34,084 nucleotides of DNA from NCBI GenBank assembly GCA_902765005.1, contig CACWYB010000026.1, positions 1,255 through 35,338 on the forward strand, given 5' to 3'. A program made the translations under genes and the position numbers. Of the stretch, positions 3,923 through 29,350 are shown in pieces. Numbering within the stretch: position 1 is the first letter of the stretch; every line of letters begins with the position of its first letter. This DNA is from an uncultured Eubacteriales bacterium. GTDB taxonomy: Bacteria > Bacillota > Clostridia > Christensenellales > CAG-138. The notes under the pieces are model-generated. The model searched no databases, was not told the origin of the DNA, and saw only the letters and a program-made list of their open reading frames with translations.

Positions 3923-3933
3923 GCTCCGCTCCT

Positions 3934-4384
3934 TAGCGTGACTACCCCTCAGTCGCCTTTCGGCGACAGCCCCCCTGACAAGGGGGGGCTAAGACAGGTT
4001 CCGTTTTTCCGTGCAACGAAACGCAAACGGCAAAAGAAAGGACCGGGGCCTTCACGCCGCCCTGATCCCTTCCTGGCTTTTCTTTAGTGTGACTACCCAT
4101 CAGTCGCCTTTCGGCGACAGCCCCCCTGACAAGGGGGCTAAGCACAGGTCCCGTTTTTCCGTTCAACGAAACGCAAAAGAAAAAGAAAGGACCGGGGCCT
4201 ACACGCCGCCCTGATCCCTTTCTTGTTTTTCTTTAGCGTGACTACCCATCAGTCGCCTTTCGGCGACAGCCCCCCTGACAAGGGGGGCTAAACACAGGTC
4301 CCGTTTTTCCGTGCAACGAAACGCAAACAGCAAAAGAAAGGACCGGGGCCTTCACGCCGCCCTGATCCCTTCCTGGCTTTTCTT
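3934..4384 (+). repeat. three tandem copies of a ~150-bp intergenic unit
   Basis: Near-identical units begin at 3934, 4085 and 4234 (spacings 151 and 149), and the last ends near 4384. Each holds two nested hairpins, AGTCGCC-TTTC-GGCGACA and AGCCCCCCTGACAAGGGGGGCT, then CCGTTTTTCCGT, AACGAAACGCAAA, AAAGAAAGGACCGGGGCC and a pyrimidine tail CTTTT. Copies differ by scattered substitutions and small indels. Units abut with no unique spacer, so this is not a CRISPR. Open frames here read the repeat and lack coding character or ribosome binding sites. Similar CAGTCGCC...GACAG/CCCCCTGACAAGGGGG blocks occur as dispersed repeats in clostridial genomes; that comparison is from memory. Confidence 0.9.
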
Positions 4385-4389
4385 TTTGC

Positions 4390-4424
4390 GCAGCTTTTTC
4401 TTTTCTCCTGAAAAGAAAAGCTGC
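4390..4424. repeat. palindromic repeat, hairpin-only copy of the dispersed family
   Basis: GCAGCTTTT(T)CTTTTC and GAAAAGAAAAGCTGC form a long, nearly perfect stem 10 nt beyond the degV stop codon. The CTTTTCTTTTTG prefix and the TTTTCTTTTC...GAAAAGAAAA core match the palindromes at 6650, 9841, 25460 and 29213. There is no adjacent T-run on either strand, so a terminator role for degV is possible but not canonical. Confidence 0.75.
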
Positions 4425-5466: not shown

Positions 5467-6468
5467 TCATTCCTCGCTTTGGATGGCCTGGGCCAGGCTG
5501 TTGTCCACCAGGTCATCAAAGGGCGGCCGACCGGTCAGCTCCCCGGCCCCGTCGATCACGTCCAGCAGGCGGCCATAGTCCGCTTCGTCCATGGAAAGCG
5601 TTTGCTTCCAGGCGTCCGCCGCCCGGTAGCTGTGGGCCACGATCATCAGGCTTTCCAGGCTGGTGTCCGGGAAGCTGGGCTGCATGGCCCGGGCGATCTC
5701 CTCGTCGGTGGCGGCGGCGCACCAGCGCTGGGCCCGGTAGATGGCCCGCAGGAAGGCGGCCACGGTGTCCGGGTCGTCTGCCAGCTTCTCCGGCGTCACC
5801 ATATAGGCCGTGTAGGGGATGCTGCCGGATTCCAGCCCCACGTTGGCCACGATATAGCCCTTGCCGGCGTTCTGCATCTCGGTGGCCGTGGGCTCGAAGA
5901 GGGTCACATAGTCCCCGGTGCCGCCCTCGAAGGCCGGGCCCATCATGTTGAACTGGATGCTGTCGATGACCTCCACGTCCGTCCCGGGCTCCAGGCCGTG
6001 CTGCCGCAGCACGTAGTACAGGGTCATAAGGGGCATGCCGCCCTTGCGGCCGCCGATGATGGTCTTGCCCCGCAGGCTCTCCCAGGCGAAGGCCGGCTCC
6101 TCATGCCTCGACATCAGAAAGGAGCCGTCCCGCTTGGTCAGCTGGCCCACCACCACCGGGTGCTTCTCCTGCCCGGCGGTATACACATACACCGCCGTCT
6201 CCGGCCCGGCCAGGCAGATGTCCGCGTCCCCGGACAAGAGGGCGGTCATGGCCTTGTCGCTGCCGCCGGAGGTGGTGATGTTCACCTGCAGGCCCTCCTC
6301 CTCGAAAAAGCCCAGGTTCAGCGCCACGTACTGGGGCGCGTAGAACACGGACCGGGTTACCTCGTGGAGCTCCACAGGCTTCGCCGCCGTCTCCCCATTC
6401 CTGCATCCCAGGGGCATAATCAGCAGCCCCAGCAGCCCCAGCAGCAGGGCGCACATCCTCTTTTTCAT
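5467..6468 (-). CDS. NMT1/SsuA-type ABC transporter substrate-binding lipoprotein (orphan)
   Basis: 333 residues. The N-terminus MKKRM plus a hydrophobic stretch ends in PLGC with Cys22, a lipoprotein signal, so the mature protein should be membrane-anchored and face outwards. It contains the NMT1/THI5-like periplasmic-binding fold: FYAPQYVALNLGFFEEEGLQV (residues ~42-62), the GGSDKAMTALLSGDADICLAGPE segment (~68-90) and LRGKTIIGGRKGGMP (~131-145). Such proteins feed taurine/sulfonate, nitrate, riboflavin or thiamine-precursor ABC transporters, and the ligand cannot be read from sequence. No permease or ATPase gene is in the window, so partners must be encoded elsewhere. AAAGGAGG lies 8 nt before the ATG. 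The lipobox is slightly atypical (Pro at -3). Confidence 0.88.
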   Translation of the reverse strand: MKKRMCALLLGLLGLLIMPLGCRNGETAAKPVELHEVTRSVFYAPQYVALNLGFFEEEGLQVNITTSGGSDKAMTALLSGDADICLAGPETAVYVYTAGQEKHPVVVGQLTKRDGSFLMSRHEEPAFAWESLRGKTIIGGRKGGMPLMTLYYVLRQHGLEPGTDVEVIDSIQFNMMGPAFEGGTGDYVTLFEPTATEMQNAGKGYIVANVGLESGSIPYTAYMVTPEKLADDPDTVAAFLRAIYRAQRWCAAATDEEIARAMQPSFPDTSLESLMIVAHSYRAADAWKQTLSMDEADYGRLLDVIDGAGELTGRPPFDDLVDNSLAQAIQSEE

Positions 6469-6550
6469 GCTCGTTCCTCCTTTTGGTTGGTTTGCTATAG
6501 TATGCTTAGTTCATCAAGATGGTGTTTTTGAGAGGAAGGATTAGTATTCG

Positions 6551-6696
6551 TACCTTTTCTTAAAAGAAAAGGTACCCAAAAGAACTTTAACCATACTAAA
6601 ATGCTTGGGGGATCTATATTCATTGACGTCCCTGAGCTTTTCTTTTTGGGCGGCTTTTTCGTTTCACTGAAAAGAAAAAGCCGCAAAGAAAAAAAG
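6551..6696 (+). repeat. composite palindromic element, copy 1 (short form)
   Basis: From left to right: palindrome TACCTTTTCT-TAAA-AGAAAAGGTA (6551-6574), the conserved CCCAAAAGAACTTTAA block (6575-6590), a ~47-nt variable middle ending in CCTGAGCTTTTC, then the hairpin GCGGCTTTTTC...GAAAAAGCCGC (6650-6684) and an A/G-rich tail. The same order occurs at 25360-25506, and inverted at 9841-9965 and 29205-29350. The element fills most of the gap between the divergent lipoprotein gene and ireB, and no gene is seen in it. A GACGTCC direct repeat at 6625 and 6696 is not conserved in the other copies. Confidence 0.85.
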
Positions 6697-6739
6697 ACGT
6701 CCAAAATGCGGAATTTTCGTGAGAAAGCGCAGATAGGGT

Positions 6740-6768
6740 TTGAATTTTTAAGGCTTCTATGGTATAGT
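6740..6768 (+). promoter_or_regulatory. promoter of the ireB-ruvX-DUF1292 operon
   Basis: TTGAAT (6740-6745), a 17-nt spacer and TATAGT (6763-6768), 55 nt before the ireB start codon. Both boxes are close to the sigma-A consensus. Confidence 0.82.
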
Positions 6769-6822
6769 ATCGCCGAGAGAGACTATTCGGCCCCCACGGC
6801 TGAAGGAAAGGAACCGAACACC

Positions 6823-7092
6823 ATGGAAAACAAGGGTGGAAAAACCACACGATTCACCTCCTCCCGCAGCGAGCTCACCCCCCGTGAGGTGCTCATGACC
6901 GTCTATTCGGCCATGAAGGAGAAGGGCTACGACCCGGTGAACCAGATCGTGGGTTACCTGCTGTCCGGCGACCCCACCTACATCACCAGCTACAAGAACG
7001 CCCGCTATCTCATTCTGCGTGTGGAGCGGGACGAGTTGTTGGAGGAGCTGGTGCGTTTCTATGCCCGCCGCCAGTCCCGGGAAGAGGAATGA
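6823..7092 (+). CDS. ireB: IreB family regulatory protein (UPF0297/DUF965)
   Basis: 89 residues. The family hallmark is very strong: [20 protein letters not shown] followed by ITSYKNAR and [13 protein letters not shown]. In Enterococcus, IreB is a small phosphoprotein targeted by the PASTA kinase IreK and phosphatase IreP, and it affects cephalosporin resistance. The role here is by homology only. The N-terminal Thr-rich part ([13 protein letters not shown]) is where the phosphorylated threonines lie in characterised members. The start at 6823 was chosen because GGAAAGGAA precedes it by 9 nt and the family begins there; an open frame running further upstream only reads the repeat. Its stop overlaps the ruvX start (ATGA). 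In many Clostridia alaS precedes it; here it does not. Confidence 0.95.
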
Positions 7093-7511
7093 TGCAGCGC
7101 ATACTGGCTTTTGATGTGGGCGACCGGCGCATCGGCGTGGCCGTGTCCGACGCCCTGGGCATCACGGCCCAGCCCCTGGAGACCTACCACCGCAAGGGCG
7201 GCGCGGAGAAGGACGCCGCATATTTGCTTGCCCTGGCGAAGAAGTACGCCCCCTGCACCCTGCTCTTCGGCCTGCCCCGGAACATGGACGGCACCTACGG
7301 CGAGCAGGCGGAGAAGGTGAAGAAGTTCGCCCAGCGGCTCATCGACCAATGGGACGGCCCCCACGCCTTCTACGACGAGCGGCTCACCACCATGGCCGCC
7401 CAGCGGGTGCTCATCGACGCGGACGTGTCCCGGGAGAAGCGCAAGCAGGTCATCGACAAGATGGCCGCCGTGGTCATCCTCCAGGGCTACATGGAGAGCC
7501 GCCGAACCTGA
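7089..7511 (+). CDS. ruvX: Holliday junction resolvase-like protein RuvX/YqgF
   Basis: 140 residues with an RNase H-like fold. Motifs: the N-terminal strand [17 protein letters not shown] with the catalytic-type Asp (~9), the [16 protein letters not shown] motif (~58-73), and [10 protein letters not shown] (~95) with DERLT and a second acidic residue, then the C-terminal [15 protein letters not shown] containing the final Asp. YqgF proteins are implicated in processing of pre-16S rRNA ends, and a Holliday junction resolvase role was proposed from structure. The start overlaps the ireB stop. A second ATG directly follows at 7092 and could also be used. It is co-transcribed with ireB and the DUF1292 gene. 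Confidence 0.95.
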
Positions 7512-7536
7512 AAAACGACGCAAAGAGGATAGAGAT

Positions 7537-7818
7537 ATGGAAGAAAAGGATACCATCGTCACCCTCATCGACGAGGACAACGGCCGGGAAGTGGATTTCG
7601 ATCTGCTGCTCACCTTCTCCTACGAGGGCAAGCGCTACGCGGCCCTGCAGCCCCTGGACGACGTGGAGGGGGTGGCGGAGGACGAGATCGTGCTCCTGGA
7701 GATCGTGAAGGAGAACGGGGAGGAGACCTACCGCTCCATCGACAACGAGATCCTGCTGGACGAGGTCTTCCGGGAGTTCCAGGACCTCTTCGACGAAGAG
7801 GACGGGGAAGAGGAATAG
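7537..7818 (+). CDS. DUF1292 family protein (YrzB-like)
   Basis: 93 residues and very acidic, with a C-terminal run of Asp/Glu (DLFDEEDGEEE). The DUF1292 pattern is visible: TLIDEDNGREVDFDLLLTFSYEGKRYAALQPLDD (residues ~8-42), EDEIVLLEIVKENGEETYRSIDNEILLDEVFREFQDL. The family has no assigned function, but it sits after ireB and ruvX in most Firmicutes, as here. It begins 25 nt after the ruvX stop. The purine-rich AAAGAGGATAGAGAT stretch supplies the ribosome binding site. Confidence 0.92.
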   Translation: MEEKDTIVTLIDEDNGREVDFDLLLTFSYEGKRYAALQPLDDVEGVAEDEIVLLEIVKENGEETYRSIDNEILLDEVFREFQDLFDEEDGEEE

Positions 7819-7880
7819 TATCCCATAGAAATGCGGCAACGGACTGGGCGGGAAGAACGCCCGGCTAAGAATCCCGTACA

Positions 7881-7908
7881 ATCTGGCGACATGCGCGTCA
7901 GATTTTTC
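7881..7908 (+). terminator. candidate terminator of the ireB operon
   Basis: ATCTG-GCG-ACATG-CGC-GT-CAGAT forms an 8-bp interrupted stem immediately followed by TTTT. It lies 62 nt after the DUF1292 stop. A further hairpin, GGGCG-GGAAGAA-CGCCC, lies between (near 7848). Confidence 0.6.
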
Positions 7909-7982
7909 ACCTTGCGGCTCTGGCCACCCTATGCTGCCTCGGCAGTATAGGCCGGAGCCGGGAACCCCGCCCGCAGGCGGTG
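7909..7982 (+). other. strongly structured intergenic segment, possible small RNA or 3' UTR
   Basis: 7916-7959 folds into one long hairpin: GGCTCTGGCC pairs with GGCCGGAGCC, and inside it CTATGCTGCC pairs with GGCAGTATAG around a TC loop. It is followed by a CCGCC-CGCA-GGCGG hairpin and then by the terminator at 7985. No start codon with a ribosome binding site or coding pattern is seen, and no clear promoter was found directly in front. I do not recognise a known RNA family; 6S-like or other housekeeping RNAs were considered without a match. Confidence 0.4.
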
Positions 7983-7984
7983 CT

Positions 7985-8025
7985 CAGTCTGTTGAAATTC
8001 TTTTCAATAGACTGAATATTTTTTT
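7985..8025 (+). terminator. strong intrinsic terminator upstream of rpsB
   Basis: CAGTCT-G-TTGAAA and TTTTCAA-T-AGACTG form a 12-13-bp stem with loop TTC, followed by AATATTTTTTT. It cleanly separates the upstream region from the rpsB promoter ten bases later. Confidence 0.8.
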
Positions 8026-8034
8026 AAAAAGCCC

Positions 8035-8063
8035 TTGCAACGGGGCTTTTGCTTTGCTATAAT
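8035..8063 (+). promoter_or_regulatory. rpsB-tsf promoter with ~110-nt leader
   Basis: TTGCAA (8035-8040), a 17-nt spacer and a perfect TATAAT (8058-8063), preceded by TGC as in an extended -10. The -35 box lies in the loop of a small hairpin, AAAAGCCC/GGGCTTTT (8027-8050). The resulting 5' leader (about 8070-8178) is GC-rich; I see no defined riboswitch in it. Autogenous control by S2 is known in other bacteria but is not shown here. Confidence 0.85.
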
Positions 8064-8172
8064 AGCCAAGGTTTATCACGCACCTCCGTGGATCGGCGGC
8101 TCTCGTCCCTGCAATATGGGTTGTCGCCTCTTGAAGCGGGGGAAGGACAAAAAATAAAACGAGGAGGTTTGA

Positions 8173-8884
<712 letters not shown>

Positions 8885-8903
8885 TCGAGGAGGATAGATT
8901 TTT

Positions 8904-9794
8904 ATGGCAACGATCACTGCTAAGGACGTGGCGGCCCTCCGTGAGCGCACGGGCGCCGGCATGATGGATTGCAAGAAGGCCCTCATGGCCTGCGAAGGCG
9001 ACGTGGAGAAGGCCATCGATTTCCTGCGGGAAAAGGGCCTGGCGGCTGCCGCCAAGAAGGCCGGTCGTATCGCCGCTGAGGGCGTGGTGGCCGATTACCG
9101 GGACGGCGACGTGGCCGTGCTGGTGGAGGTCAACTGCGAGACCGACTTCGTGGCCAAGACCGACAAGTTCCTGGATTTCGTGAAGAAGATCGCCAAGCAG
9201 ATCGCCGTCACCAACCCCGCTGACGTGGACGCCCTCATGGCCACCACCATGGACGGCGACACCGTGGAGCACGCCGTATCCACCGCCGTGGCCGGCATCG
9301 GCGAGAAGATCAGCATCCGCCGCTTCGTCCGCATCGAGGGCGCCGTGGATACCTACATCCACATGGGCGGCCGCATCGGCGTCGTGGTCCAGTTCTCCGC
9401 GCCCTGCGACAAGGAAGCCATGCATGACGTGGCCCTCCAGATCGCCGCGGCCAACCCCGTGTGCGTGGGCGTGAACGATCTTCCCCAGGATTACATCGAC
9501 CATGAGCGCAAGATCCAGCTGGCCAAGGCCCTGGATGAGAACGCCCAGGCTGCCAAGCCCAAGCCCCAGGCCATCGTGGAGAAGATGGTGGACGGCCGCA
9601 TGAGCAAGTACTACAAGGAGGTCTGCCTCCTGGAGCAGGTCTACGTGAAGGACCAGGGCATCGCCGTCAAGGATATGCTCAAGGCCAAGAACGCCTCCGA
9701 GGTCGTCAAGTTCGTCCGCTACGAGATGGGCGAGGGCCTGCAGAAGCGGGAGGACAACTTCGCTGAGGAAGTCATGTCCCAGATGAAGGCGTAA
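8904..9794 (+). CDS. tsf: translation elongation factor Ts
   Basis: 296 residues, within the normal range. EF-Ts is the guanine-nucleotide exchange factor that recycles EF-Tu-GDP. The N-terminal UBA-like domain and EF-Tu-contact motif are clear: LRERTGAGMMDCKKAL (residues ~12-27), then GDVEKAIDFLREKG and VNCETDFVAKTDKF, with the TDFV motif that inserts near the Mg site of EF-Tu. The C-terminal coiled-coil/core region includes KYYKEVCLLEQVYVKD and FVRYEMGEG. GAGGAGG lies 11-12 nt upstream of ATG. It follows rpsB in the standard rpsB-tsf operon and ends at the terminator at 9811. Confidence 0.97.
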   Translation: MATITAKDVAALRERTGAGMMDCKKALMACEGDVEKAIDFLREKGLAAAAKKAGRIAAEGVVADYRDGDVAVLVEVNCETDFVAKTDKFLDFVKKIAKQIAVTNPADVDALMATTMDGDTVEHAVSTAVAGIGEKISIRRFVRIEGAVDTYIHMGGRIGVVVQFSAPCDKEAMHDVALQIAAANPVCVGVNDLPQDYIDHERKIQLAKALDENAQAAKPKPQAIVEKMVDGRMSKYYKEVCLLEQVYVKDQGIAVKDMLKAKNASEVVKFVRYEMGEGLQKREDNFAEEVMSQMKA

Positions 9795-9810
9795 GCAAAC
9801 GCGAGCCAAT

Positions 9811-9837
9811 AGCCGGTGGATATCCACCGGCTTTTTC
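9811..9837 (+). terminator. rpsB-tsf operon terminator
   Basis: Perfect 22-nt palindrome of AGCCGGTGGAT and ATCCACCGGCT followed by TTTTCTTTT, 16 nt after the tsf stop. Confidence 0.93.
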
Positions 9838-9840
9838 TTT

Positions 9841-10082
9841 TGCCGCTTTTTTCTCTTCGGTGAAGAAAAAAGCGGCGCAAAAAAGAGAAGCTCAGGAAGT
9901 CAAAGCATGTATGCTTCCCGAGCGCTTTAGTATTCCTAAAGTTCTTTTGGACACCTTTTCTTCAGGGTGCGAAGCCGAGCGCTGCCTGTGGCAGATGCAG
10001 CGAGACGAAGCACGGGCAAAACAAAGAGAAACTAAACGGAGTGCAGGTTTCGACTATGTTTTGCCCATGGTAAAAGGTGTGT
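9841..10082 (-). repeat. composite palindromic element, copy 2 (long form, inverted)
   Basis: Read on the minus strand, the order is: a ~110-nt extension (9966-10066), AAGAAAAGGTGTCC, AAAAGAACTTTAGG, a variable middle ending CCTGAGCTTC, then the hairpin built from GCCGCTTTTTTCTCTTC and GAAGAAAAAAGCGGC (9841-9874). The extension is nearly the same as 25270-25372 in opposite orientation, with about nine bases in ten matching by eye. It seems inserted into the loop of the small GGACACCTTTT palindrome; the outer arm AAAAGGTGT survives at 10074-10082. No gene is seen between tsf and feoAB. The open frame over 9860-10144 reads this repeat. Confidence 0.85.
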
Positions 10083-10123
10083 ACTATACATCCCTCCTTT
10101 CCCCATATATTTCGCACAAAGCG

Positions 10124-10152
10124 TTGCTTCCTTCGCAAAAGTAGAGTATACT
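10124..10152 (+). promoter_or_regulatory. promoter of the feo operon
   Basis: TTGCTT (10124-10129), a 17-nt spacer and TATACT (10147-10152), 54 nt before the feoAB start. No Fur-box-like 19-bp palindrome was convincingly seen. Confidence 0.75.
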
Positions 10153-10169
10153 TGTCGAAAAAAGAGTAA

Positions 10170-10187
10170 GCCCCGGCAAACCGGGGC
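10170..10187 (+). promoter_or_regulatory. GC-rich hairpin in the feoAB leader
   Basis: GCCCCGG-CAAA-CCGGGGC is a perfect 7-bp stem 19 nt before the ATG, directly next to the weak ribosome binding region GAGCGAGGCGA. It could limit access of ribosomes or protect the mRNA 5' end. This is inferred from position only. Confidence 0.5.
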
Positions 10188-10206
10188 GTGAGCGAGGCGA
10201 ACGCAT

Positions 10207-12540
10207 ATGACTTTGGATACACTTTCCGTGGGCAGATCCGCCGTGATCCGCGTCGTGGGCGGGGAAGGCGCCCTGCGGCAGCACTTTTTGGACATGGGCA
10301 TGATCCCCGGGGCGGAGGTCACCGTGGTGAAGCTGGCCCCCATGGGCGACCCCATGGAGCTCCAGGTCCACGGCTACGAGCTGACGGTCCGCATGGCCGA
10401 CGCCGCCCAGATTGAGGTCGAGCCCATCGACAGGCGCACCAACCCCCACACGGGCATCTCCTCCATAGAAGAGAGCGAGCACCCGGGCCTGGGCGAGGGC
10501 GGCAAATACCACGCCAAGGGGGACGGGGACCCGCTCCCCGCCGGCAGCCGGCTCACCTTCGCCCTGGTGGGCAACCAGAACTCCGGCAAAACCACCCTTT
10601 TCAACCAGCTCACCGGCGCCAATCAGCATGTGGGCAACTTCCCCGGCGTCACCGTGGATCGGAAGGACGGCGTCATCAAGGGCCATCCCAACACCCTCAT
10701 CACGGACCTGCCCGGCATTTACTCCATGTCCCCCTATTCCAGCGAGGAGATCGTTTCCCGCAGCTTCGTGCTGGACGAGAAACCCACGGCCATCATCAAC
10801 ATCGTGGACGCCAACAACATCGAGCGGAACCTGTACCTCACGGTCCAGCTCCTGGAGATGCACATCCCCATGGTGGTGGCCCTCAACATGATGGACGAGG
10901 TGACCGCCAACGGCGGCTCCGTGGACGTGAACGGCATGGAAAAGCTCCTGGGCGTCCCCGTGGTGCCCATCGCCGCCGCCAAGAACCAGGGCGTGGACGA
11001 GCTGGTGAAGCACGCCCTGCACATCGCCCAGAACCAGGAGCGGCCCACCCGCCAGGATTTCTGCGACAAGCGGGACCACAACGGCGCCGTCCACCGGTGC
11101 CTCCACGGGGTCATCCACCTGATCGAGGACCACGCCGATCGGGCGGGGCTTCCGGTGCGCTTCGCCGCCAGCAAGGCGGTGGAGGGGGATAAGCTGGTGC
11201 TAAATAAGCTGGATCTGGACGCCAACGAGCGGGACATGCTGGAGCACATCATCGTCCAGATGGAATCCGAGTGCGGCATGGACCGAAGCGCCGCCATGGC
11301 GGACATGCGCTTCGACTTCATCGAAAAGGTCTGCGAGGCCACGGTCATCAAGCCCCACGAGAGCCGGGAGCGGACCCGATCCGAGCGGATCGATCGTATC
11401 CTCACCGGCAAATACACCGCCATCCCCTGCTTCATCCTCATCATGGGGGCGGTGTTCTACCTGACCTTCAACGTGATCGGCGCCTTCCTGCAGGACCTGC
11501 TGGCCGCCGGCATCGACGCCCTCACCGCCCTGGTGGATGCCGGCCTCACCGCCGCCGGGGTGAGCCCCACCATCCACAGCCTCATCGTTTCCGGGATCTT
11601 CGAGGGGGTGGGGAGCGTGCTGAGCTTTTTGCCCATCATCGTCACCCTGTTCTTCTTCCTCTCCCTCATGGAGGACAGCGGCTACGTCGCCCGGGTGGCC
11701 TTCTTCATGGACAAGCTCCTGCGGCGCATCGGCCTTTCGGGCCGGAGCATCGTGCCCCTGTTGGTGGGCTTCGGCTGCACGGTCCCCGCGGTCATGGCCA
11801 CCCGCACCCTGCCCAGCGAGCGGGATCGGAAGATGACCATCCTGCTGACCCCCTTCATGAGCTGCACCGCCAAGCTTCCCATCTACGCCTTCTTCGTCAA
11901 CGCCTTCTTCCCCGGCAAGGGCGGCTTCATCATGACGGGCCTGTATCTGCTGGGGGTCCTGGTGGGCATCCTGGTGGCCTTCCTCTATAAGGGCACCCTC
12001 TTTAAGGGGGAGGCGGCGCCCTTCGTCATGGAGCTGCCCAACTACCGGCTGCCCAGCCCCAAGAACGTGGTTCGGCTTTTGTGGGAGAAGGCCAAGGACT
12101 TTTTGCAGCGGGCCTTCACGGTGATCCTGGTGGCCACGGTGGTGGTCTGGTTCCTGCAGAGCTTCGATCTGCGCCTGAACCCGGTGGCGGATTCCCAGGG
12201 GAGCATCCTGGCCCTGCTGGCGGGGGTCATCGCCCCGGTGTTCCGGCCCCTGGGTCTGGGGGACTGGCGGATCTGCACCTCCTTCATCACCGGCTTCATG
12301 GCTAAGGAGAGCGTGGTGTCCACCCTGGGCATCCTGTTCCCCGGAGGCGTGGCGGCGGCGTTGACGCCCCTTGCCGCGGCGGCGCTGCTGGTGTTCTGCC
12401 TGCTCTACACCCCCTGCGTGGCGGCGGTGGCCGCCATCCGGCGGGAGCTGGGGGGCAGGTGGGCCCTGCTGCTGGTGCTCTGGCAGTGCGCGGCGGCGCT
12501 GCTGGTGCGGCTGTTCGGCCTGCTGCTGGGGGTGATGTGA
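10207..12540 (+). CDS. feoB: FeoA-FeoB fusion, ferrous iron transporter
   Basis: 777 residues. The N-terminal ~75 residues are a FeoA (SH3-like) domain, with RQHFLDMGMIPGAEVTVVKL and GYELTVRMADAAQIEVE. After a linker comes a FeoB G domain: G1 GNQNSGKTT (~122), HVGNFPGVTVDRKDG, G3 DLPGIYS (~168), VDANNIERNLYLT and G4 NMMD (~228). The membrane permease part begins near residue 402 and contains GFGCTVPAVMATRTLPS (~522), LLTPFMSCTAKLPIYAFF (~546) and the FITGFMAKESVVSTLG motif (~693). FeoB imports Fe(II) across the cytoplasmic membrane with GTPase-dependent gating; FeoA is usually a separate small protein. The start at 10207 gives the complete FeoA domain, although its ribosome binding site is weak. 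The Cys-rich partner gene begins immediately after the stop. Confidence 0.96.
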   Translation: MTLDTLSVGRSAVIRVVGGEGALRQHFLDMGMIPGAEVTVVKLAPMGDPMELQVHGYELTVRMADAAQIEVEPIDRRTNPHTGISSIEESEHPGLGEGGKYHAKGDGDPLPAGSRLTFALVGNQNSGKTTLFNQLTGANQHVGNFPGVTVDRKDGVIKGHPNTLITDLPGIYSMSPYSSEEIVSRSFVLDEKPTAIINIVDANNIERNLYLTVQLLEMHIPMVVALNMMDEVTANGGSVDVNGMEKLLGVPVVPIAAAKNQGVDELVKHALHIAQNQERPTRQDFCDKRDHNGAVHRCLHGVIHLIEDHADRAGLPVRFAASKAVEGDKLVLNKLDLDANERDMLEHIIVQMESECGMDRSAAMADMRFDFIEKVCEATVIKPHESRERTRSERIDRILTGKYTAIPCFILIMGAVFYLTFNVIGAFLQDLLAAGIDALTALVDAGLTAAGVSPTIHSLIVSGIFEGVGSVLSFLPIIVTLFFFLSLMEDSGYVARVAFFMDKLLRRIGLSGRSIVPLLVGFGCTVPAVMATRTLPSERDRKMTILLTPFMSCTAKLPIYAFFVNAFFPGKGGFIMTGLYLLGVLVGILVAFLYKGTLFKGEAAPFVMELPNYRLPSPKNVVRLLWEKAKDFLQRAFTVILVATVVVWFLQSFDLRLNPVADSQGSILALLAGVIAPVFRPLGLGDWRICTSFITGFMAKESVVSTLGILFPGGVAAALTPLAAAALLVFCLLYTPCVAAVAAIRRELGGRWALLLVLWQCAAALLVRLFGLLLGVM

Positions 12541-25235: not shown

Positions 25236-25269
25236 AGGAACGTATTGAAAGCCGGTATCCCTGTACCGG

Positions 25270-25506
25270 GTGCAAAACATAGTCGAAACCTGCACTACGT
25301 TTGGTTTCTCGTTGTTTTGCCCGTGCTGCGCCTTGCTGTATCTGCCACAGGCAGCGCAATGGCTTCGCACCCTGAAAGAAAAGGGACCCAAAAGAACTTT
25401 AAGAAGGAGGCTGAGTAGGTTTACATAGCCTCCTTTTGCTTCTTAAGCTTTTCTTTTTGGGCACCTTTTTCTTTTCACTGAAAAGAAAAAGGTGCAAAAG
25501 AAAAAA
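25270..25506 (+). repeat. composite palindromic element, copy 3 (long form)
   Basis: The order is: a ~105-nt extension (25270-25372) containing GCAAAACATAGTCGAAACC and GCCACAGGCAGCG, then GAAAGAAAAGGGACC, CCAAAAGAACTTTAAG, a variable middle with GGAGGCTGAGTAGG/CATAGCCTCC pairing, then GCTTTTCTTTTTG and the hairpin GCACCTTTTTCTTTTC / GAAAAGAAAAAGGTGC (25460-25494). It matches copy 2 (9841-10082) in inverted orientation along its whole length. It fills the gap between rny and the dipeptidase gene, and its 3' edge is only 15 nt from the dipeptidase ATG. No gene is seen in it. Confidence 0.85.
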
Positions 25507-29204: not shown

Positions 29205-29350
29205 ATTTCTTTTGCCGCTTTTTCTTTTCGGTGAAAAGAAAAAGCGGCGCAAAAAGAAAAGCACAGGGATAGCAATAGGGAAGTACCGCGCAAGCAATAC
29301 TCCCCAAATAAAGTTCTTTTGGACACCTTTTCTTTCAAGAAAAGGTGTCC
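29205..29350 (-). repeat. composite palindromic element, copy 4 (short form, inverted)
   Basis: On the plus strand the order is: hairpin GCCGCTTTTTCTTTTC / GAAAAGAAAAAGCGGC (29213-29248), CAAAAAGAAAAGCACAGGG, a variable middle, then TAAAGTTCTTTTGG and the perfect 14-bp palindrome GGACACCTTTTCTT-TC-AAGAAAAGGTGTCC (29321-29350). The order is opposite to copies 1 and 3. It lies between the convergent ends of the EamA gene and asnA, where its hairpins could serve as a two-way terminator. No gene is seen in the gap. Confidence 0.85.

What the first reader, a model, noticed from the sequence alone, without database searches (positions are those of the whole stretch)
6551..6696. A four-copy composite intergenic element with two palindromes and a conserved core
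Copies at 6551-6696, 9841-10082, 25270-25506 and 29205-29350 share the same order: a GGTGTCC/GGTACC-type palindrome, CCAAAAGAACTTTA, a variable ~45-nt middle, GCTTTTCTTTTTG and a long CTTTTTCTTTTC/GAAAAGAAAAAG hairpin. Stem arms vary in a compensated way (GCGGC/GCCGC, GCACC/GGTGC, GCAGC/GCTGC), so pairing is kept while sequence drifts. That suggests a structured RNA or a mobilised miniature element. Every copy lies between genes, and a hairpin-only copy sits at 4390.
Basis: seen in the sequence. Interest (0 to 1): 0.7.

Follow-up and report, generated by a model that had tools for sequence, protein, structure and literature searches.

The report
Repeated gene-end terminator cassette
A short DNA cassette made of three hairpins is scattered between genes in all twelve genomes searched of one gut-bacterial genus, usually right after stop codons and often between two genes that face each other, where it probably stops transcription from both sides; its outer hairpins also keep an odd mirror symmetry that suggests a three-stranded structure.

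Summary
The four-copy element is real and belongs to a large family: 44 exact core matches in the window's 77%-complete genome (reversed control 0), and matches in all 12 genomes of the genus searched. Anatomy: hairpin A, purine tract, 47-52 nt middle (M), pyrimidine tract, hairpin B; B is an A-like module in opposite orientation.

Copies sit at gene ends. A stop codon lies within 60 nt of the A side in 80 and of the B side in 88 of 140 elements (random sites 23 of 600); 24 of 99 convergent gene pairs hold one against 1 of 99 divergent pairs. The finding's own copy (6551) is a divergent exception. At two orthologous junctions without it an ordinary-looking terminator stands instead. I read it as a bidirectional terminator / 3'-UTR cassette whose content is replaced as a block at fixed sites.

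Unexpectedly, each stem arm is mirrored, not inverted, by the neighbouring tract, and the two covary (194 of 220; shuffles 44). At the variable tract positions 366 of 370 pairs follow triple-helix rules. I know only triplex or H-DNA logic that reads mirror symmetry, but the clamp strains that geometry; the physical basis is unproven. Closest known: REP/BIME repeats and BoxC/PIT triplex repeats.

The parts
6550..6575 (+). copy 1, hairpin A (clamp GTACC/GGTAC, core TTTTCTT..AAGAAAA)
   Evidence: sequence; RNA fold
6578..6585 (+). copy 1, purine tract R3 (AAAAGAAC), mirror of the A stem arm
   Evidence: sequence; family-wide relation
6586..6636 (.). copy 1, middle segment M, candidate bidirectional terminator stem
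6637..6647 (+). copy 1, pyrimidine tract Y3 (CTTTTCTTTTT): candidate U-tract of M and mirror of the B stem arm
   Evidence: family-wide relation
6650..6684 (+). copy 1, hairpin B (clamp GCGGC/GCCGC)
9842..9876 (-). copy 2, hairpin B
9879..9890 (-). copy 2, tract beside B (AAAAAAGAGAAG on the + strand)
9891..9940 (.). copy 2, middle segment M
9941..9948 (-). copy 2, tract beside A (GTTCTTTT on the + strand)
9950..10081 (-). copy 2, hairpin A split by a nested repeat at about 9962-10072
25265..25388 (+). copy 3, hairpin A with nested repeat inside (outer limits approximate)
25390..25397 (+). copy 3, R3 tract
25398..25447 (.). copy 3, M with a long stem
25448..25495 (+). copy 3, Y3 tract and hairpin B
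29214..29261 (-). copy 4, hairpin B and its tract
29262..29312 (.). copy 4, M
29313..29350 (-). copy 4, tract and hairpin A; this copy lies between convergent genes
4377..4424 (+). solo B module (Y3 tract + hairpin), 9 nt from the called end of a minus-strand gene

Best explanation
It is a repeated, exchangeable gene-end cassette. The middle (M) forms a stem with an A-rich tract before it and a U-rich tract after it when read from either side, so it can act as an intrinsic terminator for both converging transcripts. Hairpins A and B then lie between each stop codon and the shared terminator, in the 3' UTR of each mRNA, where they plausibly block 3'-to-5' decay. Shown: family, structure with compensatory change, position behind stop codons, bias to convergent junctions, two junctions with terminator-like hairpins in its place, and replacement of content at fixed sites. 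Inferred: actual termination, RNA protection, and the route of replacement (gene conversion between copies is most likely). The mirror covariation between each stem and its neighbouring tract is shown; reading it as selection for a three-stranded (triplex/H-DNA) form is inference.
For: A called stop codon lies within 60 nt of the A side in 80 and of the B side in 88 of 140 testable elements (47 both, 19 neither; 10 of 150 dropped as too near an edge), median distance 20 and 12 nt; random single positions 23 of 600. Of 40 own copies, 21 are convergent, 16 codirectional, 3 divergent. In 850 gene pairs from 61 stretches a two-hairpin element lies in 24 of 99 convergent, 29 of 652 codirectional and 1 of 99 divergent pairs; at least one hairpin in 39, 46 and 6. 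Two orthologous junctions (L009/L086; L034/L166 and L193) lack it and by eye carry GC hairpin terminators. In genus g26 the A module alone sits between gene ends and terminator-like hairpins: of 11 sites, 8 have a called stop within 11 nt and 9 a terminator-like hairpin downstream. M folds better than mononucleotide shuffles (median z -2.25; 82 of 150 below -2). Clamp covariation. Block replacement: of 10 shared sites between two species with 95.8% identical flanks, M is 0.94-1.0 identical in 7 and 0.65-0.71 in 3, near the 0.61 median for pairs of different copies within G006.
Against: The simple terminator scan, run over copies 1 and 2 only, listed no site at M, and its total (7) was hardly above shuffles (6.2). 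68 of 150 M segments do not fold below z = -2. Copy 1 lies between divergent genes and copy 2 follows tsf's own terminator-like site at 9811-9832. 19 of 140 elements have no called stop codon close on either side. Both g11 sites lack a called stop in the module's orientation and a terminator-like hairpin. Gene calls come from my own codon-usage caller, not an annotation. There are no transcript data. A terminator needs neither a fixed M length (47-52 nt in 150 of 150; the extraction allowed about 37-66) nor a mirror relation.
Confidence: 0.6

Rival explanations
1. A non-autonomous mobile element (MITE or REP-like) without a host role, tolerated mainly behind stop codons because insertion elsewhere is harmful.
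For: High copy number of related sequences, one inverted orthologous copy (L012 against L157), junctions with and without it, a second repeat nested inside its hairpins.
Against: 103 of 126 cross-species comparisons find it at the same junction in the same orientation (16 partial, 6 called empty, 1 inverted; comparisons are directional and not independent); no RAYT hit in the own genome; no target duplication seen; the narrow distances to stop codons and the convergent bias look like more than tolerance; clamps stay paired while they diversify.
Confidence: 0.2
2. The main function is the three-stranded form: H-DNA or an intrastrand triplex on each side acts as a transcription or replication barrier that insulates converging genes. 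(Not exclusive of the terminator reading.)
For: Mirror tracts match in 194 of 220 parsed modules (2000 shuffles: mean 44.5, max 65); within class (C,2) 85 of 94 against mean 52.4, max 64, and within (CTC,2) 32 of 33 against 21.3, max 28. At the tract positions where both T and C occur in the stem, the third tract follows (A with T; C or G with C) in 366 of 370. Eleven matched types, in 1 to 11 genomes and with 1 to 23 clamps each. 66 of 87 solo hairpins keep the mirror tract on one side. In B, substitutions fall 34 on R, 8 on the third tract and 1 on Y1.
Against: The paired clamp (about 5 bp) lies between stem arm and third tract within a spacer of 5-12 nt, so an intrastrand triplex with the clamp closed looks strained; arms are short (7-12 nt). 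Class (C,4) hardly varies and so tests nothing (58 of 65 against a shuffled mean of 57.2); in class (CTC,3) 17 of 19 match but shuffles also reach 17. True mismatches exist: by eye 8 of the 220 parsed and 4 of the 8 unparsed. Just outside the tract the rule fails (A position -6: T with C in 3 of 3). The strand asymmetry is absent in A (R 8, third tract 8, Y1 9). Types are few and may be inherited as blocks.
Confidence: 0.25
3. A chromosome-organising site (binding site of gyrase or a nucleoid protein) placed between convergent genes, as proposed for BIMEs (recalled).
For: Convergent bias and the strikingly constant spacing of the two hairpins.
Against: 16 of 40 own copies lie between codirectional genes; single modules occur behind single genes in another genus; no binding evidence.
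Confidence: 0.08

Closest known systems
BoxC / PIT / TM_ECO intrastrand triplex repeats of Enterobacteria (Holder et al. 2015, PMC4666352)
   Same: Interspersed, intergenic, conserved repeat of one pyrimidine and two purine tracts, the third mirroring the stem; sometimes two copies in inverted arrangement. The paper ties them to genomic instability; here cassettes are replaced as blocks.
   Different: TM_ECO is G/C-rich, has short loops without a paired clamp, lies more often upstream of ORFs, and showed no terminator activity in earlier work. Here: A/T-rich, covarying clamp, paired around M, behind stop codons.
REP / BIME elements with RAYT transposases (recalled; PMC1525189 and PMC2817692 seen in search listings only)
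   Same: High-copy extragenic palindromes in inverted pairs; association with gene ends.
   Different: No PF01797 hit in the own genome; three-hairpin plan with M and a mirror relation.
Bidirectional intrinsic terminators between convergent genes (recalled; PMC5381666 on compensatory evolution of terminators seen in a search listing only)
   Same: A-tract, stem-loop, U-tract usable from both strands.
   Different: Ordinary ones are not a homologous repeated family and lack the two flanking modules (recalled).
MALAT1-type 3'-end triple helices (recalled)
   Same: U-rich tract, U-rich stem arm, A-rich arm in the same order on one strand.
   Different: Bacterial, repeated, and on the strand antisense to the adjacent gene; triplex not shown.

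Membership tests
Intrinsic (bidirectional) terminator | Stem-loop followed by a U-rich tract in both directions | tested here: inconclusive
   U-rich tracts on both sides in 50 aligned copies; M folds below z -2 in 82 of 150; the simple scan listed no site at M of copies 1 and 2, but was hardly above shuffles (7 against 6.2)
Intrinsic (bidirectional) terminator | Position at gene ends, enriched between convergent genes | tested here: met
Intrinsic (bidirectional) terminator | RNA 3' ends at the site | not testable with these tools
   no transcript data
REP/BIME with RAYT | REP-associated Y1 transposase in the genome | tested here: not met
   PF01797: 0 of 1 own genome (77% complete, so a missed gene is possible); the search rang in 5 of 14 control genomes; other genomes of the genus not searched
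MITE | Terminal inverted repeats and target-site duplication at insertion | tested here: inconclusive
   no clean empty/filled pair: at the compared junctions the whole intergenic region differs
BoxC/PIT intrastrand triplex motif | Stem of at least 6-7 nt mirrored by a third tract that gives canonical triplets | tested here: met
BoxC/PIT intrastrand triplex motif | Loops of 1-6 nt between the three tracts (search range in PMC4666352) | tested here: not met
   spacer between stem arm and third tract is mostly 7 or 9 nt because of the paired clamp, and 5 or 6 nt in a minority
BoxC/PIT intrastrand triplex motif | Triplex formation in solution | not testable with these tools
   needs CD, NMR or probing
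Any Rfam family | Score at or above the gathering threshold | tested here: not met
   only rRNA and tRNA in the window; in the permissive search over 6400-10300 (copies 1 and 2) no match reached its gathering score, the best by E-value being RefA5 with 33.5 of 91 bits

The most novel reading that the evidence does not exclude
A bacterial gene-end element under selection for a three-stranded nucleic acid structure: its stem arms and third tract change together by triplet rules (T.A-T to G.G-C or C.G-C) across a genus, which would be evolutionary covariation evidence for a working triplex or H-DNA in bacteria, coupled to termination between converging genes.
Probability: 0.27. Interest if true: 0.85.

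Novelty: new variant of a known kind. Interest (0 to 1): 0.6.

Why it matters
If right, a whole bacterial genus has turned one repeated cassette into a common gene end, shared between converging genes and swapped as a unit. The mirror covariation offers a direct, testable handle on whether triple-stranded structures are selected for in bacteria; the published triplex repeats had no specific function assigned beyond a link to genomic instability (PMC4666352).

Tried and rejected
The first hairpin regex found only 6 and was replaced by an explicit scan (the row listing was cut in the output, as was that). The parse misread stems with trailing GGA and was redone. Of the 26 mismatches, by eye, 18 are parsing artefacts (the hairpin arm had swallowed the first bases of the third tract, or a tract was split wrongly) and 8 are real; of the 8 unparsed modules 4 are real mismatches by eye. 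(fuzzy B modules) mixed the two sides of the hairpin (its counts, Y1 55, R 6, Y3 54, are not used); one search replaced it, but counts only hairpins to which a type could be fitted. Of the 6 comparisons called empty I trust 3 (two sites); the others look like alignment artefacts. Wobble counts (B, T.G 15 against A.C 2; A, T.G 2 against A.C 7) were too few and too related to decide RNA against DNA. Watson-Crick pairing of the A tract with the B tract, or of the outer T-rich tract with the third tract, was considered for the mirror relation; by inspection neither co-varies, but I ran no formal test. Four of the 66 stretches (L081, L083, L131, L134) show no hairpins by eye and were dropped as chance hits. 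No covariance model was built. Paper searches showed no listed title that reports this element; lists were capped and only the held open-access library was searched.

Full report
Observation. The four copies in the window are real and share the order hairpin A, purine tract R3, middle M, pyrimidine tract Y3, hairpin B. The window is C26:1255-35338 of a 2.38 Mb, 45-contig, 77% complete genome. One 146-base query gives 57 match rows there, 40 at separate places and 17 on the opposite strand of these palindromic arms, with only 40 of 113 candidates scored. The R3-M-Y3 pattern occurs 44 times in this genome, 27 in G006 and 18 in G001, with 0 for the reversed control, and 0 in G021 and G036. By DNA similarity 12 of 12 genomes of the genus match, 2 of 25 of other genera in the family (weakly) and 0 of 24 from the rest of the order, with at most 14 candidates scored per genome. 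An exact pattern for module A alone is found in 23 of 103 family genomes and 4 of 26 genera: 12 of 12 genomes of this genus, 7 of 8 in g11, 2 of 2 in g16 and 2 of 2 in g26. Named hits are MAGs titled uncultured Clostridiales or Clostridia bacterium, such as RUG472, RUG10656, RUG14713 and, from sheep jejunum, RGIG5880; that RUG stands for rumen genomes is recalled.

Structure. Anchored only on the inner core, the outer clamps co-vary strongly: A positions 2-5 are paired in 153, 147, 129 and 145 of 159 modules with all four pair types at each; B positions 2-4 in 139, 139 and 142 of 144. The pairing stops beyond the clamp (B position 6: 8 of 144). M varies in sequence but is 47-52 nt long in 150 of 150 elements; the extraction would have accepted about 37-66 nt. 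No Rfam family reaches its threshold.

Where it sits. In 40 own-genome copies (36 fetched loci and the 4 in the window; locus L036 skipped) 21 lie between convergent, 16 between codirectional and 3 between divergent genes, with no overlap of a called gene. In 61 stretches (1.11 Mb; the window, nine stretches around feoB, and the rest mostly chosen because they hold a copy) two-hairpin elements lie in 24 of 99 convergent, 29 of 652 codirectional and 1 of 99 divergent pairs; pairs more than 1500 bases apart were left out. A called stop codon lies within 60 nt of the A side in 80 and of the B side in 88 of 140 testable elements, 121 of 140 on at least one side, against 23 of 600 for random single positions; the median distance is 20 nt to A and 12 nt to B. 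The window holds one divergent (6551), two codirectional and one convergent copy, so the copy named in the finding is atypical.

Orthologous sites. Flank comparison of 113 elements gave 126 cross-species comparisons, which are directional and not independent: 103 same orientation, 16 partial, 6 called empty, 1 inverted (L012 against L157). At two sites the species without the element carries what looks by eye like an ordinary GC hairpin terminator (L009/L086; L034/L166 and L193). Between G001 and G006 (flanks 95.8% identical) M is 0.94-1.0 identical at 7 of 10 shared sites and only 0.65-0.71 at 3; pairs of different copies within G006 have a median of 0.61. So content is replaced as a block at fixed sites. 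Across 70 orthologous pairs the median M identity is 0.70 with flanks at 88%. In genus g26 the A module stands without a second module in the scan: of 11 distinct sites 8 have a called stop within 11 nt upstream and 9 a terminator-like hairpin within about 110 nt downstream; the 2 g11 sites have neither in the module's orientation.

Mirror relation. Oriented with the hairpin first and M downstream, the tract R3 beyond the clamp is the mirror image of the R arm, not its complement. Of 315 hairpins in 183 partly overlapping records (deduplicated by sequence), 228 have exactly one partner hairpin on one side. R3 was not used to find them. 220 could be parsed and 194 match in all three parameters, with 2000 shuffles giving a mean of 44.5 and a maximum of 65. 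By class: (C,2) 85 of 94 against a mean of 52.4, max 64; (CTC,2) 32 of 33 against 21.3, max 28; (CTC,3) 17 of 19 against 12.0, max 17; (C,4) 58 of 65 against 57.2, max 59, and (C,3) 6 of 6 against 6.0, both uninformative for lack of variation. By eye 18 of the 26 mismatches are parsing artefacts, which would make 212 of 220, and 4 of the 8 unparsed modules are true mismatches.

In a fixed register (217 modules whose R3 core could be recognised: A 103, B1 64, B2 50), the positions inside the tract where both T and C occur in the stem give: A -4, 92 of 93 T with A and 10 of 10 C with C or G; A -5, 17 of 17 and 86 of 86; B2 -5, 49 of 49 and 1 of 1; B2 -6, 28 of 28 and 21 of 22; B1 -6, 0 of 2 and 62 of 62; together 366 of 370. 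One step further out, in the A clamp, the rule fails (T with C in 3 of 3). On the other strand the kept combinations are T.A-T, G.G-C and C.G-C triplets (TAT and CGC of the parallel motif as in PMC4666352; a parallel G.G-C triplet is recalled). Of 293 fitted modules 241 are perfect on all three strands (A 124 of 141, B 117 of 152); substitutions in B fall 34 on R, 8 on R3 and 1 on Y1, in A 8, 8 and 9. 66 of 87 solo hairpins keep the mirror tract on one side. Caveats: copies are related, types may travel as blocks, and the paired clamp between R and R3 (spacer 5-12 nt) leaves little linker for an intrastrand triplex. H-DNA in the duplex would not need the clamp, but the arms are short. A mirror repeat offers no two-fold or direct-repeat symmetry to a protein dimer, so I know no other structural reading; none is proven.

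Mechanism. Most likely: a two-way intrinsic terminator (M with an A-tract on one side and a U-tract on the other) shared by two transcripts, each of which carries A or B between its stop codon and the terminator. Against: the simple scan over copies 1 and 2 listed no site at M, though it was hardly above shuffles itself (7 against 6.2); 68 of 150 M segments do not fold below z = -2; and copy 2 follows tsf's own terminator-like site.

Comparison. The nearest published things are the BoxC/PIT/TM_ECO intrastrand triplex repeats (PMC4666352: abstract, first part of the introduction, sections 15, 16 and 18 and passages read), which are G/C-rich, more often upstream of ORFs and without terminator activity, and REP/BIMEs (recalled; listings). 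The element shares features with both but fails the RAYT test and differs from TM_ECO in composition, clamp and spacer, pairing around M, and location. I call it a new variant of a known kind.

Noticed in passing
window 9962-10072 and about 25270-25375; also L044, L051, L066: A second repeat of about 110 bp (9 matches in the own genome), with its own hairpins, sits inside hairpin A or B of the main element in several copies and species.
   Followed up: partly
all 150 extracted elements: The middle segment keeps a length of 47-52 nt although its sequence varies widely; no explanation.
   Followed up: partly
window 3930-4385: Three tandem copies of a repeat of about 150 bp directly behind the 5S rRNA gene, ending at the solo B module.
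   Followed up: no
window 8179-8884: The ORF that looks by eye like rpsB (S2) is split into two frames around 8320-8330, perhaps an assembly error or deletion.
   Followed up: no
L012 against L157: The whole element, including its conserved lead sequence, is inverted in place between two species.
   Followed up: partly
G001-G006 shared sites: Elements at the same site are either nearly identical or largely different, which suggests block replacement.
   Followed up: partly
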